Shown here: positions 3,780-57,750 of the stretch, piece after piece
Layout: every line of letters starts with the position of its first letter
Position numbering within the stretch: position 1 is the stretch's first letter
NCBI GenBank assembly: GCA_013177855.1
Contig: JABLYA010000001.1
Location: 1,287,231-1,351,230 of the forward strand
Length of the DNA: 64,000 nucleotides
DNA from: Ignavibacteria bacterium
Lineage (GTDB): Bacteria; Bacteroidota; Ignavibacteria; Ch128b
Direction: 5' to 3'
Position numbers and translations under genes: made by a program
The notes under the pieces: model-generated
Databases searched by the model: none
Seen by the model: the letters and a program-made list of their open reading frames with translations, nothing else
Told to the model about the DNA's origin: nothing

Positions 3780-4413
3780 TCGCGAACCCATCCTTAGATT
3801 TTGCCGGAATAATGAAGTTTAAAACCAGATAGACTATTGCAGCGAGTCCAAAAGATGCAAAGAAAAAAATGACCCATATTAAACGCACAAGATTTGGATT
3901 AATATTTAGATATTCACCAAATCCGGCACATATTCCAAAGATAAGTTTTCGATCCGATTTTCTTATCTCTTTTATTTCATTTTCTGGCATAATTACTTCC
4001 AATTTGTAATGGTTATTGATTAATAACGCAATACTAAACACTAAAAGAGTAAATGCATCGATCTTCTGTGAGAGGAATGCAAAAATTGTTTTGATTGATA
4101 TCATATCATTATATAAAAGAAACAGCAAAACAATTCCAATAATGAATAATAAATTCAATGTAATTGTATTTGAGTTTAATCGAGAATACTTTCCCCGATT
4201 TTCATTCACAGGTAATAAAATTCCAAATGCAGAATAAATTATAAGAATAGACTGACCCAGAAAGAAAAAAGCCGTTAAAACAATTATTCGAATAAAAACT
4301 GGATTTACATTTATGAAATTTCCAAAGGCTTCACAAACGCCCATTAAAAATTTTTCGGATGGATTAATTTCAAGACTTCTCTTTGATTGATAAGATTGAG
4401 TTTCTTCTTCCAT
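3772..4413 (-). CDS. Twin PspC-domain membrane protein
   Basis: A 213-residue protein with two PspC-type modules. The first lies at about residues 13-55 (NPSEKFLMGVCEAFGNFINVNP...), the second at about 150-205 (SDRKLIFGICAGFGEYLNINP...); each has the G-(I/V)-C-x-G/A-F-G core followed by a transmembrane helix, and two further helices separate them. PspC domains take part in phage-shock/envelope-stress signalling at the inner membrane. The duplication within one chain is visible in the sequence; functional consequences are unknown. It is the first gene of the minus-strand run that continues through MlaE and the ABC exporter pair. Confidence 0.88.
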   Translation of the reverse strand: MEEETQSYQSKRSLEINPSEKFLMGVCEAFGNFINVNPVFIRIIVLTAFFFLGQSILIIYSAFGILLPVNENRGKYSRLNSNTITLNLLFIIGIVLLFLLYNDMISIKTIFAFLSQKIDAFTLLVFSIALLINNHYKLEVIMPENEIKEIRKSDRKLIFGICAGFGEYLNINPNLVRLIWVIFFFASFGLAAIVYLVLNFIIPAKSKDGFANE

Positions 4414-49142: not shown

Positions 49143-49235
49143 AAAACAACAATCCCGACGAATGTCGGGACTGTTGTAAGTTATTCACTACGGAATAATC
49201 CTTATTGTGATTTGCTGGTCTAAATTAATTATTTT
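49143..49235 (-). ncRNA. tracrRNA of the type II-C CRISPR system
   Basis: Read on the minus strand from upstream of cas9: an anti-repeat AGCAAATCACAAT (about 49215-49203) that pairs with the 5' part of the CRISPR repeat (GTTGTGATTTGCT), with a bulge before a further TCTAAAT/TCAAAT match; then AAGGATTATTCCG, the nexus-like stem known from Bacteroidetes tracrRNAs; a short stem (GTAGTGAATAACTTAC); and a terminator hairpin at 49146-49177, 14 pairs (ACAACAGTCCCGAC / GTCGGGATTGTTGT) with loop ATTC and a TTTT tail. The 5' end is approximate, since no promoter was identified. It is divergent from cas9, whose ATG lies about 25 bp upstream. Confidence 0.88.
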
Positions 49236-49259: not shown

Positions 49260-52200
49260 ATGAAAAAAATATTGGGCTTAGACATCGGTTCCAACTCAAT
49301 AGGTTGGGCTCTCATTGAAAATAATTTTAATGAGAGAAAAGGAAAAATTCTTGGAATGGGTAGCAGAATTATACCCATTGAAACCGAGCTACTTAAAAAT
49401 TTTGAACAAGGGTTATCAGCTTCAAAAGCAGCAGAAAGAAGAGCAGCAAGGCAAATTAGAAGACTAAGGCATAGATATAAATTAAGAAGAGAAAGATTAA
49501 TAAAAGTATTTAAACAACTCGGATGGTTCCCACAGAATTTCCCTGAGAAATTTGATTCGCTTGAACAATTTAATATCAATGATTTGGTTCCATTTTCTGA
49601 GGAAACAATTAATGAAGCTAAACAAATCTTTAAAGTCGAAAAACTACCCGTTGATTGGGCAATATATTACCTAAGAGACAAAGCATTAAAACAAAAAATA
49701 ACTCTTAATGAACTTGCTCGCGTTATTTATCATTTCAATCAAAGACGAGGCTTTAAATCTACGAGAAAAGAAAAATCAGATAGTGAATCCATAGAAGAAA
49801 TTGATAACAAAAAAGTATTCTTAGAATATATTCGTGTTGAAAGTATTACAGATACTGGCGAAACCTCCAGAGGGAAAAAAGTTTTCTTACTAAATGGCAA
49901 ATCTCCTGATGGCAAAATTTATACAGGGAAATTGATCAGAAAAGAAATCCCATCTGAATGGATAAATAATACAATTCAATTAGAAATAGCAGAAACACAG
50001 ACAAGAAACGGAGAAACCAAAGTAGAATTTCGTAAACCCGATCTAACTGATTGGAAAAAACAATTAACAGCACTGGAAAAAGAAATTAAAAGTTCGGGTT
50101 TATATGTAGGTCAATATCATTTTTATAACCTCATCGCTGATCCAAATTATAGAATTAAAGAAAAAGTCGTAAGCAGAAATTTTTATCAAGAAGAACTTGA
50201 AGCAATCTGGAAAAAACAATCAGAATTTTATCCTGAATTAAATGACAGATCTAAGCTCGAAGATGTTGCTAAACTTCTCTATCCACACAATATTCAAAAA
50301 CAACAGGAACTCTTAAAAGGTGATTTATTAAACATTATTGAAAACGATATCATTTATTACCAAAGACCCTTAAAATCTCAGAAAAAATTAATCGCAGGAT
50401 GCAGATTTGAAAAGAAAAATTATGTTGATATCTATGGTAACCGACCAGGTTATAAAGTCGCACCTAAAAGTTCTCCTCTTTATCAAGAATTTAGAATATG
50501 GCAAGACATTCATAACCTTAGAGTATTTCAAAAAGAATTTAAAACTCCAGATGGGAAATATCTTTTTGACATAGAACAAACCGATATTTTGCTAAACACA
50601 GAAAACAAAGAAAAACTTTTTGAACTTTTTGATAATAACGCAAAAATTAAAGTTGATGATATTTTGAGCACTTTATCTGATTCTAACTTTAAAGTATCTA
50701 AAGACACTCATCGAATTAATTTCCCTGAGGATAAAGAATTTCCAGGCAATGAAACTAAACATAAATTCAGGCAAGCATTTAAAAAATTTAATTACACTGA
50801 AGAAGGAGAAAAAATTCTCAACGATCCTGACAAATTTTTTGAACTATGGCATATCTTCTATTCATTAGAAGACGAACTGGTAATTAAAAATGTTTTAATT
50901 AAAAAATTTGGATTTAGTAACGAACTGGCATCTTATATATCATCTTTACCTTCATTTAAGAAAGATTATGCTGCATATTCTTCAAAAGCTTTGAAAAAAT
51001 TATTACCATTGATGCGCTGTGGAAAATATTGGAGACCCGACGAAATTCATCCAGAAACAATTGAAAGAATAAATAAAATTATTTCCGGTGAATTACTTCC
51101 AAAATTTCCCGAGAACATTCAAAAGATTTTTAAAAATGGTAATTTCCAATCTTTAAATGATTTTCAAGGACTGCCGGTTTACCTTGCCACTTATGTTGTT
51201 TATGGATTGCATTCAGAGAGAGAGAATTACGAAAAATTTGAAAGCCCCGACGAAATCGATACAAACAAACTTTTACCAAATAATTCCCTAAGAAATCCTG
51301 TTGTCGAACAGGTGGTTCGTGAAACTCTAAATCTGGTCAAAGATGTATGGAAACAATACGGTCAACCTGATGAAATTCACATTGAGCTTGCAAGAGATCT
51401 AAAAAACAATAGCGAAACACGAAAAAAGATTGCAGATGCAATGAGACAAAATGAAAAAGATAGAAGAAGAATAATAGGTATCCTGAGACATCTAAAAAAC
51501 GCTAATCCATACTCTGAAAACGATATTGAAAAATTAAGACTCTGGGAAGAAACCGCCAATATCGATGCTAAACTTTCAATGCCTAAAATTTCTGATAACC
51601 CTACCGAAGCTGAAATTCAAAAATATTTACTCTGGGGTGAACAAAATCACATTTCTCCATATACAGGTAAAGTTATCCCGTTGAGTAAACTCTTCACAAA
51701 CGAATATGAAGTTGAGCACATAATTCCAAAATCTCGTTTCTTTGACGATTCTTTTGCCAATAAAACCATTTGTGAAGCAGCAGTAAATAAGTACAAAGAT
51801 CAAAGAACTGCATTTGAATTTATTTCTGAATTAGGTGGAACAACTGTACCAGATACTAACATCCGAATCTTAACAATGGATGAATTTAGACAGCATATCA
51901 ATCTTACATTTAAAGGAAAAAAGAAAAATTATTTCTTAAGGCAGTCAATTCCAGACAATTTTATAAATCGCCAGATTAATGAAACAAGATACATCAACAG
52001 AAAACTTGGACAACTACTTTTCCCGATTGCAAAAGAAAGCATTGTATTTACATCAGGACAGATAACAGCTGCACTAAAATCAGAGTGGGGCTTAAATCGT
52101 GTCTGGAAAGAATTATTGCTTCCAAGATTTGAGAGATTAGAAAAAATTCTTGGTCAACAAATTATTATTAGAGATGAAACCAATAATGATATTCATTTCA

Positions 52201-53543
52201 ATATTGATTGTGATAAAAAACGAATAGATCATCGTCATCACGCACTCGATGCGCTTGTAATTGCTGCTACAACTCGCGAACACATCAGATATTTAAATTC
52301 TCTCAATGCTGCTGATAAAGACGAAATACAGCAAATAAGATATAAACTTGTCAAAAAAGGCATACGGGAATTCCACTTACCCTGGCTAACTTTCACAAAA
52401 GAGGCTAAAGAAAAATTACAAGGCGTGATTGTCTCATACAAAAATCGTATGCGAATTGTTCAGAAAGGATACAACAAATATCAAAAATGGGTTTATGAAA
52501 ATGGGAAATGGGTGAAAAAGTTTGTCACTCAGGATAGAAGTAAACTTTATTCAATTAGAAAATCATTATTTAAGGAACCGCTCGGTGTTATTAATTTAGC
52601 CACTTATAAAGATGTAAGAGTAAACGAAGCAATAAAAATACAGTTCGAATATCTTACAAATTATAAAGACTCCCTGCAACCAAGAATTGCAAATAAAAAT
52701 CTGAGAAATCAAGTAAACCAATTGATTAAAAATTGTTCCTTTGATCTTAAGGAAACTTTAGATTACATCAAGTCAAAACCATTGAAAGATGAAAATGGAA
52801 AACCATTAGATAGAATTACAATTCTGAAGTTTGAACAATACGCAGGAAAAAGAGTGCAGCTTGATGCGACTTTTGATGAAACTAAAATTGATAAAATTCC
52901 TTACTCATATCATAATCCAATTGTAAAAATTTTAAAAGAACATCTTGCCGAATATAATAACTCTTCAAAAGAAGCTTTTACCGGCGAGGGTTTAGAAAAA
53001 CTTTACAAGAAAATTGGTTTCCCAATCCGCAAAGTGACCCGCTTTGAGGATATTGGCAATAAGTTGAATTTTAAAGGAAAACTGTTCGAAACTGATAAAG
53101 GCGGAAATGTATTTTTCATTATCTACGAAAATATTCACGATCCAACGGATAGAATAATTACAGCCGAGTCAAGTATTTCGGTTCTGGATGCAGTACAAGC
53201 TTTCATTGAAGGCAAAAAGAAAAATGATTTAGGTGAATACAAACCAGGCTATAGAAAAATTATTTTATCACCGCTTGACTTAGTTTATGTTCCGGATGAT
53301 GGTGAAGTGATTGAAAGTATTGATTGGAGTAATACAGAAAAGTTAAGTAATAAAATTTACAAAGCTGTTAGCTTTTCAAAAGGTTCTATTTTCTTCGTAC
53401 CTCATTTTGTTGCTAAACCTATTGTTGAAACAAAAGAACTGGGTTCAAATAACAAGGCAGAACGGGATTGGACTGGCAAAATGATCAAAGAAAGATGCAT
53501 TAAACTGGTTGTTGATAGACTCGGAAATATTAAACCAGAATAA
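49260..53543 (+). CDS. cas9: Cas9 RNA-guided endonuclease, type II-C
   Basis: A 1427-residue Cas9. RuvC-I is ILGLDIGSNSIGWAL with Asp8; the arginine-rich bridge helix spans ~58-82 (AAERRAARQIRRLRHRYK). RuvC-II HIELARDL has Glu709; the HNH motif YEVEHIIPKS has His820, with Asn843 at the metal-ligand position; RuvC-III HRHHALDAL has His994 and Asp997. All residues matching Asp10, Glu762, His840, Asn863, His983 and Asp986 of S. pyogenes Cas9 are present, so both nuclease sites should work. The remaining ~400 residues hold the wedge and PAM-interacting parts. It is longer than compact II-C enzymes (about 1000-1100 residues). Lack of csn2 and cas4 makes this II-C. Ribosome-binding site AAAGGG precedes the ATG. 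Confidence 0.98.
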   Translation: MKKILGLDIGSNSIGWALIENNFNERKGKILGMGSRIIPIETELLKNFEQGLSASKAAERRAARQIRRLRHRYKLRRERLIKVFKQLGWFPQNFPEKFDSLEQFNINDLVPFSEETINEAKQIFKVEKLPVDWAIYYLRDKALKQKITLNELARVIYHFNQRRGFKSTRKEKSDSESIEEIDNKKVFLEYIRVESITDTGETSRGKKVFLLNGKSPDGKIYTGKLIRKEIPSEWINNTIQLEIAETQTRNGETKVEFRKPDLTDWKKQLTALEKEIKSSGLYVGQYHFYNLIADPNYRIKEKVVSRNFYQEELEAIWKKQSEFYPELNDRSKLEDVAKLLYPHNIQKQQELLKGDLLNIIENDIIYYQRPLKSQKKLIAGCRFEKKNYVDIYGNRPGYKVAPKSSPLYQEFRIWQDIHNLRVFQKEFKTPDGKYLFDIEQTDILLNTENKEKLFELFDNNAKIKVDDILSTLSDSNFKVSKDTHRINFPEDKEFPGNETKHKFRQAFKKFNYTEEGEKILNDPDKFFELWHIFYSLEDELVIKNVLIKKFGFSNELASYISSLPSFKKDYAAYSSKALKKLLPLMRCGKYWRPDEIHPETIERINKIISGELLPKFPENIQKIFKNGNFQSLNDFQGLPVYLATYVVYGLHSERENYEKFESPDEIDTNKLLPNNSLRNPVVEQVVRETLNLVKDVWKQYGQPDEIHIELARDLKNNSETRKKIADAMRQNEKDRRRIIGILRHLKNANPYSENDIEKLRLWEETANIDAKLSMPKISDNPTEAEIQKYLLWGEQNHISPYTGKVIPLSKLFTNEYEVEHIIPKSRFFDDSFANKTICEAAVNKYKDQRTAFEFISELGGTTVPDTNIRILTMDEFRQHINLTFKGKKKNYFLRQSIPDNFINRQINETRYINRKLGQLLFPIAKESIVFTSGQITAALKSEWGLNRVWKELLLPRFERLEKILGQQIIIRDETNNDIHFNIDCDKKRIDHRHHALDALVIAATTREHIRYLNSLNAADKDEIQQIRYKLVKKGIREFHLPWLTFTKEAKEKLQGVIVSYKNRMRIVQKGYNKYQKWVYENGKWVKKFVTQDRSKLYSIRKSLFKEPLGVINLATYKDVRVNEAIKIQFEYLTNYKDSLQPRIANKNLRNQVNQLIKNCSFDLKETLDYIKSKPLKDENGKPLDRITILKFEQYAGKRVQLDATFDETKIDKIPYSYHNPIVKILKEHLAEYNNSSKEAFTGEGLEKLYKKIGFPIRKVTRFEDIGNKLNFKGKLFETDKGGNVFFIIYENIHDPTDRIITAESSISVLDAVQAFIEGKKKNDLGEYKPGYRKIILSPLDLVYVPDDGEVIESIDWSNTEKLSNKIYKAVSFSKGSIFFVPHFVAKPIVETKELGSNNKAERDWTGKMIKERCIKLVVDRLGNIKPE

Positions 53544-53557
53544 AAATTCTTGATTCT

Positions 53558-54818
<1,261 letters not shown>

Positions 54819-54900: not shown

Positions 54901-54934
54901 CTCATTATATTTTAATGAGATATTATATAATGAG
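54901..54934. promoter_or_regulatory. AT-rich palindrome abutting the first repeat
   Basis: CTCATTATAT (54901-54910) and ATATAATGAG (54925-54934) are exact inverted arms 14 bases apart; the last base is the first base of repeat 1. An inner TAATGAG adds a second pairing option. It lies at the cas2-proximal, presumably active, end of the array, so it may help Cas1-Cas2 recognise the integration site or bind a host factor. Role is inference. Confidence 0.45.
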
Positions 54935-57750
54935 CTGATTCAATATTTGAAAAGAACTATTTGAAAGCAAATCACAACTAAACAAAGTTTCAAACGAAGG
55001 AGAACAAAGCTGATTCAATATTTGAAAAGAACTATTTGAAAGCAAATCACAACTGGAGCTGTGGGGATTCGAACCCCAGTCCTGCTGATTCAATATTTGA
55101 AAAGAACTATTTGAAAGCAAATCACAACGAAAGTATTTTCAACGAAAAAGTTGAACCGCTGATTCAATATTTGAAAAGAACTATTTGAAAGCAAATCACA
55201 ACTCAATCTCTTTTGCCTTTTCTGGATTAAGAGCTGATTCAATATTTGAAAAGAACTATTTGAAAGCAAATCACAACTAAAAATGTAAAGTTCTTTGCTT
55301 TCGAATAGCTGATTCAATATTTGAAAAGAACTATTTGAAAGCAAATCACAACACTTTACTTTCATAAATAATAAGAGAGCCTGCTGATTCAATATTTGAA
55401 AAGAACTATTTGAAAGCAAATCACAACCTAATGCTTCCTTAAAAACCTTAGCATATTGCTGATTCAATATTTGAAAAGAACTATTTGAAAGCAAATCACA
55501 ACCCCTTTCTTGGACGAATTCATTGACTATTCGCTGATTCAATATTTGAAAAGAACTATTTGAAAGCAAATCACAACACGAGTATTTGAGCCAACTAATT
55601 GGAATTTGCTGATTCAATATTTGAAAAGAACTATTTGAAAGCAAATCACAACAAGAGAATATAACGGTCACCAAGTTTTACTGCTGATTCAATATTTGAA
55701 AAGAACTATTTGAAAGCAAATCACAACAACTTATTTGCGAGAAAGTTTTCAAGATTTGCTGATTCAATATTTGAAAAGAACTATTTGAAAGCAAATCACA
55801 ACACTTTACTTTCATAAATAATAAGAGAGCCTGCTGATTCAATATTTGAAAAGAACTATTTGAAAGCAAATCACAACAAACAGAAAGCAGTGGTTAAAAC
55901 TTCGTTCGCTGATTCAATATTTGAAAAGAACTATTTGAAAGCAAATCACAACTTATATTACTAATGGCTATATAGCGTTCGCGCTGATTCAATATTTGAA
56001 AAGAACTATTTGAAAGCAAATCACAACATAAAAATCAATAGCAAATATAATCTTTGGCTGATTCAATATTTGAAAAGAACTATTTGAAAGCAAATCACAA
56101 CCTTTCTACCTTGAAATGGTCTAAGAAATTCGCTGATTCAATATTTGAAAAGAACTATTTGAAAGCAAATCACAACTTAATTTATCAATTCTATTTCTGT
56201 CCCTTTGCTGATTCAATATTTGAAAAGAACTATTTGAAAGCAAATCACAACAAAATCATCATATTCACATCTGCGAGTAAGGCTGATTCAATATTTGAAA
56301 AGAACTATTTGAAAGCAAATCACAACCCCATTTACAATAACAAGTTTATACCTTTCGCTGATTCAATATTTGAAAAGAACTATTTGAAAGCAAATCACAA
56401 CTTGATGAAAGAACACAAAAAGGAAAGACAAGCTGATTCAATATTTGAAAAGAACTATTTGAAAGCAAATCACAACGAATTCATCAATTTTCATTGTTTG
56501 ACTCCTGCTGATTCAATATTTGAAAAGAACTATTTGAAAGCAAATCACAACTAATATAGATGAAAAAGAAAGAAGGTTAGTGCTGATTCAATATTTGAAA
56601 AGAACTATTTGAAAGCAAATCACAACGAAAAACTTATTGTCATTCAAAAAGTTATTGCTGATTCAATATTTGAAAAGAACTATTTGAAAGCAAATCACAA
56701 CAGAGATAATGATACTCTTTTAGTTTGTTATGCTGATTCAATATTTGAAAAGAACTATTTGAAAGCAAATCACAACCCGATGCTTGCATAATCACTTAAA
56801 GAAAAGCTGATTCAATATTTGAAAAGAACTATTTGAAAGCAAATCACAACATATAAGTGGAGTAACTAATAACAAAATAGGCTGATTCAATATTTGAAAA
56901 GAACTATTTGAAAGCAAATCACAACTTTTAGAAAGAGCAATTGCAAATGAGTATGGCTGATTCAATATTTGAAAAGAACTATTTGAAAGCAAATCACAAC
57001 TGTTGAGTATACATTCATCAATGGTGTTTAGCTGATTCAATATTTGAAAAGAACTATTTAAAAGCAAATCACAACATGACTGTAAATATATTTTTAAATT
57101 TAAAAGCTGATTCAATATTTGAAAAGAACTATTTGAAAGCAAATCACAACAGGATTGAGATTTTAAGGATTGAGATTTTAGCTGATTCAATATTTGAAAA
57201 GAACTATTTGAAAGCAAATCACAACTGAATGAATTGAATATTAATTGTAGTTCATACTGATTCAATATTTGAAAAGAACTATTTGAAAGCAAATCACAAC
57301 GCAAATTCCGAAACGATGTCAATTACTTCCGCTGATTCAATATTTGAAAAGAACTATTCGAAAGCAAATCACAACATTCCATATAAACATCACAATCATT
57401 ACATCGCTGATTCAATATTTGAAAAGAACTATTTGAAAGCAAATCACAACACATGGAGTTCAATTGCAAAGAAATTTTACGCTGATTCAATATTTGAAAA
57501 GAACTATTTGAAAGCAAATCACAACAATTTGTTCTTTAACTCGGGAGGTATTAGCGCTGATTCAATATTTGAAAAGAACTATTTGAAAGCAAATCACAAC
57601 CGAAATCAACAATAGGAAAATTAAATTCTTGCTGATTCAATATTTGAAAAGAACTATTTGAAAGCAAATTAAAACAATAGTAACCGAAGCCTCCCGGCTT
57701 TCGTTGCTGATTCAATATTTAAAAAGAACATTTTGAAATCAAATCAAAAC
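54934..57750 (-). CRISPR. Type II-C CRISPR array, 38 repeats and 37 spacers
   Basis: A 45-bp repeat, on + strand GCTGATTCAATATTTG...CAAATCACAAC, recurs at 54934, 55009, 55084, 55158, 55233 and on to 57706, with 29-30 bp spacers (period 74-75). On the minus strand it starts GTTGTGATTTGC, the usual crRNA orientation for Bacteroidetes II-C. Most repeats are identical; single changes occur at 57031, 57256 and 57331, and the repeats at 57631 and 57706 are degenerate at the GTTGTG end, so the NUDIX side is the oldest end and the cas2 side the growing end. Spacer at 55353-55382 is identical to that at 55803-55832. Only 13 bp separates the array from the NUDIX stop. Confidence 0.99.

What the first reader, a model, noticed from the sequence alone, without database searches (positions are those of the whole stretch)
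55054..55083. CRISPR spacer contains a tRNA T-arm and acceptor 3' strand
Seen: the spacer TGGAGCTGTGGGGATTCG plus AACCCCAGTCCT; its complement reads TGGGG-TTCGAAT-CCCCA, a perfect five-pair T-stem with the conserved loop, then CAGCTCC-A as acceptor strand and discriminator. Known: phages and integrative elements carry tRNA genes or integrate at tRNA 3' ends, giving att sites with this sequence. Inferred: the target is a phage-borne tRNA or an att-containing element; a match to a host tRNA would be self-targeting.
Basis: partly seen in the sequence, partly recalled or inferred. Interest (0 to 1): 0.75.

Follow-up and report, generated by a model that had tools for sequence, protein, structure and literature searches.

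The report
CRISPR spacer matching a phage tmRNA gene
One of the newest memory entries in a bacterial Cas9 immune array is the tail end of a tRNA-like gene, most likely the ribosome-rescue RNA (tmRNA) gene that some viruses of bacteria carry, and it does not match the bacterium's own copy; this is ordinary immunity aimed at an unusual target.

Summary
Spacer 2 of a 37-spacer Cas9/Cas1/Cas2 (II-C-type) array (55054-55083) is, on the minus strand, AGGAC-TGGGG-TTCGAAT-CCCCA-CAGCTCC-A: pre-T-stem bases, T-arm, acceptor 3' strand and base 73. Anti-repeat and repeat orientation show that the crRNA is read from this strand, so the guide has the sense of the RNA gene and any PAM lies just 3' of base 73. 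The source is better named than "a tRNA". The GAC before the T-stem occurs in 61/61 tmRNAs examined, but tRNA-Ala has GTC (11/12). Rfam's tmRNA model, not its tRNA model, is reported on the spacer. The closest sequences found anywhere are viral tmRNA genes (29/30, eight contigs), and all 37 near-matching IMG/VR contigs carry tmRNA. The best cellular tRNA-Ala genes match 28/30. It is not self-targeting: no other site within 3 mismatches in the genome, own ssrA 7 mismatches, tmRNA of a co-binned phage-like contig 6. No exact protospacer was found and the PAM is unknown, so phage tmRNA is preferred, not proven; a tRNA-Ala-type gene or attachment site remains possible. Spacer 19 matches a co-binned phage contig at 28/30. 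Ordinary CRISPR immunity, unusual target.

The parts
55054..55083 (-). Spacer 2 of 37; guide in crRNA sense AGGACUGGGGUUCGAAUCCCCACAGCUCCA, the 3' end of a tmRNA-like gene
55079..55081 (-). GAC just 5' of the T-stem: tmRNA signature (tRNA-Ala has GTC)
55074..55078 (-). T-stem 5' strand TGGGG
   Evidence: sequence
55067..55073 (-). T-loop TTCGAAT
   Evidence: sequence
55062..55066 (-). T-stem 3' strand CCCCA
   Evidence: sequence
55054..55061 (-). acceptor 3' strand CAGCTCC and base 73 (A); the guide ends at base 73, so a PAM would begin at position 74
   Evidence: sequence
54934..57750 (-). CRISPR array: 38 repeats of 45 nt, 37 spacers of 29-30 nt; degenerate repeats at the cas-distal end (57631, 57706) mark the old end; repeat matches Rfam CRISPR-DR49 on the minus strand, below its gathering score
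54819..54933 (.). AT-rich leader region on the cas2 side (new-spacer end)
   Evidence: inferred from repeat decay
49260..53543 (+). Cas9, 1427 aa (TIGR01865, 499 bits; HNH_4 and RuvC_III domains)
53558..54505 (+). Cas1, type II (TIGR03639, 306.8 bits)
54486..54818 (+). Cas2 (TIGR01573)
49145..49216 (-). predicted tracrRNA: anti-repeat AGCAAATCACAA (49205-49216) pairing with repeat GTTGTGATTTGCT, then a strong terminator-like hairpin
56327..56356 (-). Spacer 19: 28/30 match to C4:12750-12779 of the same assembly, a phage contig (terminase, portal)

Best explanation
A Cas9 (II-C-type) array has recently captured a 30-nt piece of the 3' end of a tmRNA (ssrA) gene carried by a phage, or another mobile element, that infects this bacterium. 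The crRNA is read from the minus strand, pairs with the tracrRNA encoded upstream of cas9, and guides Cas9 to that gene in the invader's DNA, with a PAM starting right after base 73. The host's own ssrA is spared because it differs at 7 of 30 positions, three of them in the PAM-proximal ten. Shown: array, Cas proteins, anti-repeat, guide strand, tmRNA-type sequence, absence of a self match, and a phage target for another spacer of the same array. Inferred: that the source was phage-borne, that it was tmRNA rather than tRNA-Ala, and that Cas9 cuts it.
For: Sequence class: GAC before the T-stem in 61/61 tmRNAs (30/30 in a set of bacterial genes chosen without reference to the spacer) against 1 of 12 tRNA-Ala. 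The Rfam tmRNA model is reported on the spacer. Closest known sequences: eight IMG/VR contigs with 29/30, all tmRNA; all 27 contigs with 2-4 mismatches from the other scan also carry tmRNA; S-CRM01 permuted tmRNA 28/30 and Streptomyces phage tmRNA 27/30 in INPHARED. Host relevance: contig C7 of the same assembly carries a tmRNA and 7 tRNAs and is, with other low-GC contigs, phage-like; spacer 19 matches phage contig C4 at 28/30, against no better than 7 mismatches for shuffled spacers. Guide strand. Phages with tmRNA are known (402 of 18,146 genomes, PMC9004378; huge phages, PMC7162821).
Against: No exact protospacer in any collection searched. The 29/30 matches are in viral contigs from other samples and differ at guide position 25, in the PAM-proximal part, so they show the class and are not the target. 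Bacterial tRNA-Ala genes in other families of the phylum reach 28/30, closer than any cellular ssrA compared (5 or more mismatches in 30 genes). Two scan patterns fixed the GAC, so the tmRNA count among IMG/VR hits is partly built in; the one pattern leaving two bases there free found nothing. PAM unknown; the single protospacer (C4, 3' flank ACCAAGACAG) does not show the F. columnare PAM. The guide folds on itself strongly, which could weaken it.
Confidence: 0.6

Rival explanations
1. The spacer comes from a phage-borne tRNA-Ala gene or from an attachment site derived from the 3' end of a tRNA-Ala (or ssrA) gene in an integrative element or temperate phage.
For: tRNA-Ala(GGC) genes of several families of the phylum match 28/30 with the same T49-A65 pair and loop; Gordonia phage Yeezy has a 27/30 match directly beside a tyrosine integrase with no ARAGORN gene there, and several related Gordonia phages match equally; tmRNA genes are frequent integration sites (PMC11915505).
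Against: All the tRNA-Ala-type matches inspected carry GTC where the spacer has GAC; the Rfam tmRNA model is the clan match kept on the spacer; closest viral matches are whole tmRNA genes. For an ssrA att site, no relative sampled has an ssrA near the spacer.
Confidence: 0.28
2. Self-derived spacer: taken from the host's own ssrA or a tRNA, giving autoimmunity or a regulatory guide.
For: Host-derived spacers are acquired in II-C systems (PMC8092290).
Against: No other place in the 3.66-Mb assembly within 3 mismatches; own ssrA 7 mismatches including guide positions 21, 22 and 25. A gene missing from the assembly is possible but its completeness estimate is 100%.
Confidence: 0.05
3. Chance resemblance: a protospacer unrelated to tRNA or tmRNA.
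For: No exact target known; other spacers' targets are mostly unknown too.
Against: T-arm, acceptor strand, base 73 and pre-T-stem bases are all in place; a T-arm alone is expected 0.26 times in 64 kb of shuffled sequence; composition is far from that of the other spacers.
Confidence: 0.03

Closest known systems
Type II-C CRISPR-Cas of Bacteroidota, e.g. Flavobacterium columnare (PMC8092290)
   Same: Cas9-Cas1-Cas2 without a further cas gene in the operon, long repeats (here GTTGTGATTT...), 30-nt spacers, PAM-adjacent end of the guide towards the leader, crRNA direction towards the leader
   Different: the PAM here is unknown; the one phage protospacer found does not carry NNNNNTAAA
Phage-encoded tmRNA (ssrA): S-CRM01, Streptomyces phage Sushi23, marine phages such as Melnitz, huge phages
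   Same: the spacer reads as the last 30 bases of such a gene before CCA
   Different: no known phage has the exact sequence; best 29/30
tRNA-Ala-type att sites of integrating phages (Gordonia phage Yeezy)
   Same: 3' end of a tRNA-like gene carried as a fragment by a phage, 27/30
   Different: has tRNA-Ala GTC instead of GAC

Membership tests
Type II-C CRISPR-Cas | Cas9 with RuvC and HNH domains | tested here: met
   TIGR01865 499 bits; HNH_4, RuvC_III
Type II-C CRISPR-Cas | cas9-cas1-cas2 only, no csn2 or cas4 beside them | tested here: met
   ORF list: the array follows cas2 directly, and the cas9-cas1-cas2 run holds no further gene; ORFs further away were not all searched by profile
Type II-C CRISPR-Cas | tracrRNA with anti-repeat | tested here: met
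   12-nt exact anti-repeat at 49205-49216 and terminator-like hairpin, fold z -5.9; expression not testable
Type II-C CRISPR-Cas | 3' PAM on protospacers | tested here: inconclusive
   only one protospacer (C4), 3' flank ACCAAGACAG
Type II-C CRISPR-Cas | Cas9 places with II-C in a tree | not tested
   no tree built
tmRNA gene (source of the spacer) | T-arm, acceptor strand and base 73 of the tRNA-like domain | tested here: met
tmRNA gene (source of the spacer) | GAC before the T-stem | tested here: met
   61/61 tmRNAs, 2 of 69 tRNAs
tmRNA gene (source of the spacer) | tag reading frame and tmRNA pseudoknots | not testable with these tools
   the spacer holds only 30 bases; exact source not found
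tRNA-Ala gene or att site (source of the spacer) | GTC before the T-stem | tested here: not met
   spacer has GAC; tRNA-Ala 11 of 12 GTC. A usual rather than an absolute feature: 1 of 12 has GAC
Self-targeting spacer | matching protospacer in the host genome | tested here: not met
   own ssrA 7 mismatches

The most novel reading that the evidence does not exclude
The guide is aimed at a conserved 3' end that serves both as the working part of phage tmRNA and as a favourite integration site, so that one spacer gives immunity to several unrelated ssrA- or tRNA-Ala-linked phages and islands while sequence drift in the host gene keeps the host safe.
Probability: 0.08. Interest if true: 0.5.

Novelty: new member of a known kind. 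Interest (0 to 1): 0.3.

Why it matters
It suggests that Cas9 immunity can be directed at a gene whose homologue is a conserved gene of the host, so that self and non-self are told apart by a handful of mismatches. It also ties this lineage to phages that probably carry their own ribosome-rescue RNA; a phage-like contig with a tmRNA is binned with this genome. Otherwise it is ordinary spacer capture.

Tried and rejected
Exact 28-30-nt scans of IMG/VR and GTDB representatives: nothing. Degenerate GTDB scan with positions 6 and 14 free: nothing. A pattern leaving two bases before the T-stem free, to let tRNAs in: nothing in IMG/VR. Spacer 1 exact in IMG/VR: nothing. The other spacers against INPHARED: no match. 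Spacers against 391 genomes of the class: apart from the own array and C4, only weak matches, spacer 2 hitting ssrA or tRNA-Ala at about 90%. PAM from arrays with the same repeat in relatives: none of the other 148 genomes has the repeat. Relatives of the co-binned phages through their terminases in IMG/VR: none. The C7 tmRNA as the target: rejected, 6 mismatches. Mean profile scores did not separate the sources cleanly: small viral tmRNA set best, tRNA-Ala next, bacterial tmRNA poor; the viral set was selected with the spacer, so I gave this no weight.

Full report
What is there. The window (G000:C1:1287231-1351230) holds cas9 (49260-53543), cas1 (53558-54505) and cas2 (54486-54818), then an AT-rich stretch and an array of 38 repeats of 45 nt with 37 spacers of 29-30 nt. 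Repeats decay at the far end (2 and 5 changes in the last two), so the cas2 side is the new end, and the spacer in question, 55054-55083, is the second newest.

Strand. A 12-nt piece of the repeat (TTGTGATTTGCT) occurs just upstream of cas9 at 49205-49216. Read on the minus strand it is an anti-repeat, AGCAAATCACAA, followed by a small hairpin and a strong terminator-like hairpin (z -5.9), the layout of a tracrRNA. The repeat pairs with it in the sense GTTGTGATTTGCT, and Rfam's CRISPR-DR49 model places the repeats on the minus strand too, though below its gathering score. The guide is therefore AGGACUGGGGUUCGAAUCCCCACAGCUCCA, and a PAM would lie 3' of its last base. In Flavobacterium columnare II-C the arrangement is the same: transcription runs towards the leader and the PAM-adjacent end of the spacer faces the leader (PMC8092290).

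What the spacer is. The guide is the last 30 bases, up to base 73, of a tRNA-like 3' end. By chance a perfect T-arm of this form is expected 0.26 times in the whole shuffled window, and the only one lies here. The spacer is also the GC-richest and the most self-structured of the 37.

tmRNA or tRNA. The bases just before the T-stem are GAC in all 61 tmRNAs examined, including 30 bacterial tmRNA genes fetched without regard to the spacer, and GTC in 11 of 12 tRNA-Ala genes; 2 of 69 tRNAs have GAC. The Rfam tmRNA model is the clan member reported for the spacer (15.8 bits, E 0.0013). In IMG/VR, eight contigs match 29/30, and all carry tmRNA by ARAGORN or Rfam, one of them a gene cut by the contig end and below the gathering score. 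Twenty-seven contigs from another pattern scan, with 2-4 mismatches, all carry tmRNA, some of permuted type; in L034 the Rfam match spans only 83 nt, and L035 rests on ARAGORN alone. In INPHARED the best is the permuted tmRNA of S-CRM01 (28/30), then Streptomyces phage tmRNA and Gordonia phage att-like sites (27/30). Against this, tRNA-Ala(GGC) genes of other families of the phylum reach 28/30, whereas 30 cellular ssrA genes of the class differ at 5 or more positions, mostly at the loop base and in the acceptor strand. Because two of the IMG/VR patterns fixed the GAC, I do not count those hits as an unbiased vote. The best reading is a phage-type tmRNA; tRNA-Ala or an att site derived from it is the serious rival.

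Not self. The only place within 3 mismatches in the assembly is the array. The host's ssrA differs at guide positions 1, 6, 7, 16, 21, 22 and 25, and the tmRNA on contig C7 at 6, 7, 16, 21, 22 and 25. Three of these lie in the ten PAM-proximal bases, so cutting is unlikely (inference from general Cas9 behaviour).

Phages of this host. The assembly contains low-GC contigs (25-29% against 33% in the window). C7 carries a tmRNA, 7 tRNAs, an Hsp70 and a family-B DNA polymerase; C5 has 14 tRNAs and a large terminase; C8 a tail sheath; C3 and C4 terminase and portal genes. Spacer 19 matches C4:12750-12779 at 28/30, while shuffled spacers reach no better than 7 mismatches. That spacer shows the array aims at phages binned with this genome. 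Whether C7 infects this host is not shown. Phage tmRNA is known: 402 of 18,146 phage genomes (PMC9004378), and huge phages (PMC7162821).

What is missing. No exact protospacer was found, the PAM could not be derived from one protospacer, and relatives of the co-binned phages are not in IMG/VR at the sensitivity used. The spacer's self-folding may make it a poor guide.

Verdict. A confirmed observation and a sharper reading: ordinary Cas9 immunity, probably against a phage's tmRNA gene. Interest is modest.

Noticed in passing
G000 contigs C5, C6, C7, C8 (loci L037-L044, L078-L080, L086, L087, L092-L105): About 0.5 Mb of low-GC contigs binned with the bacterium; together 27 tRNA genes on C5, C6 and C7, a tmRNA, a 1061-aa terminase and a tail sheath. 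They may be pieces of one huge phage or of several.
   Followed up: partly
L042:2000-2848 (C7:102000-102848): A Thg1 (tRNA-His guanylyltransferase) homologue on the phage-like contig with the tmRNA, which also carries a tRNA-His gene.
   Followed up: no
L043:10342-12207 (C7:130342-132207): A full-length Hsp70 (858 bits) on the same phage-like contig.
   Followed up: no
window 55353-55382 and 55803-55832: Spacers 6 and 12 are identical, six units apart, so the array carries an internal duplication or a repeated acquisition.
   Followed up: no
window 57676-57705: Spacer 37, the oldest, also folds strongly (-9.7 kcal/mol) and is GC-rich (50%); possibly a terminator or another structured RNA.
   Followed up: no
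L047:1126-1184 and 3937-4152: A viral contig with a glutamine riboswitch and a cyanobacterial-type tmRNA, a pairing of the kind reported for phage Melnitz (PMC9004378), plus a wcaG RNA and an abiF RNA.
   Followed up: no
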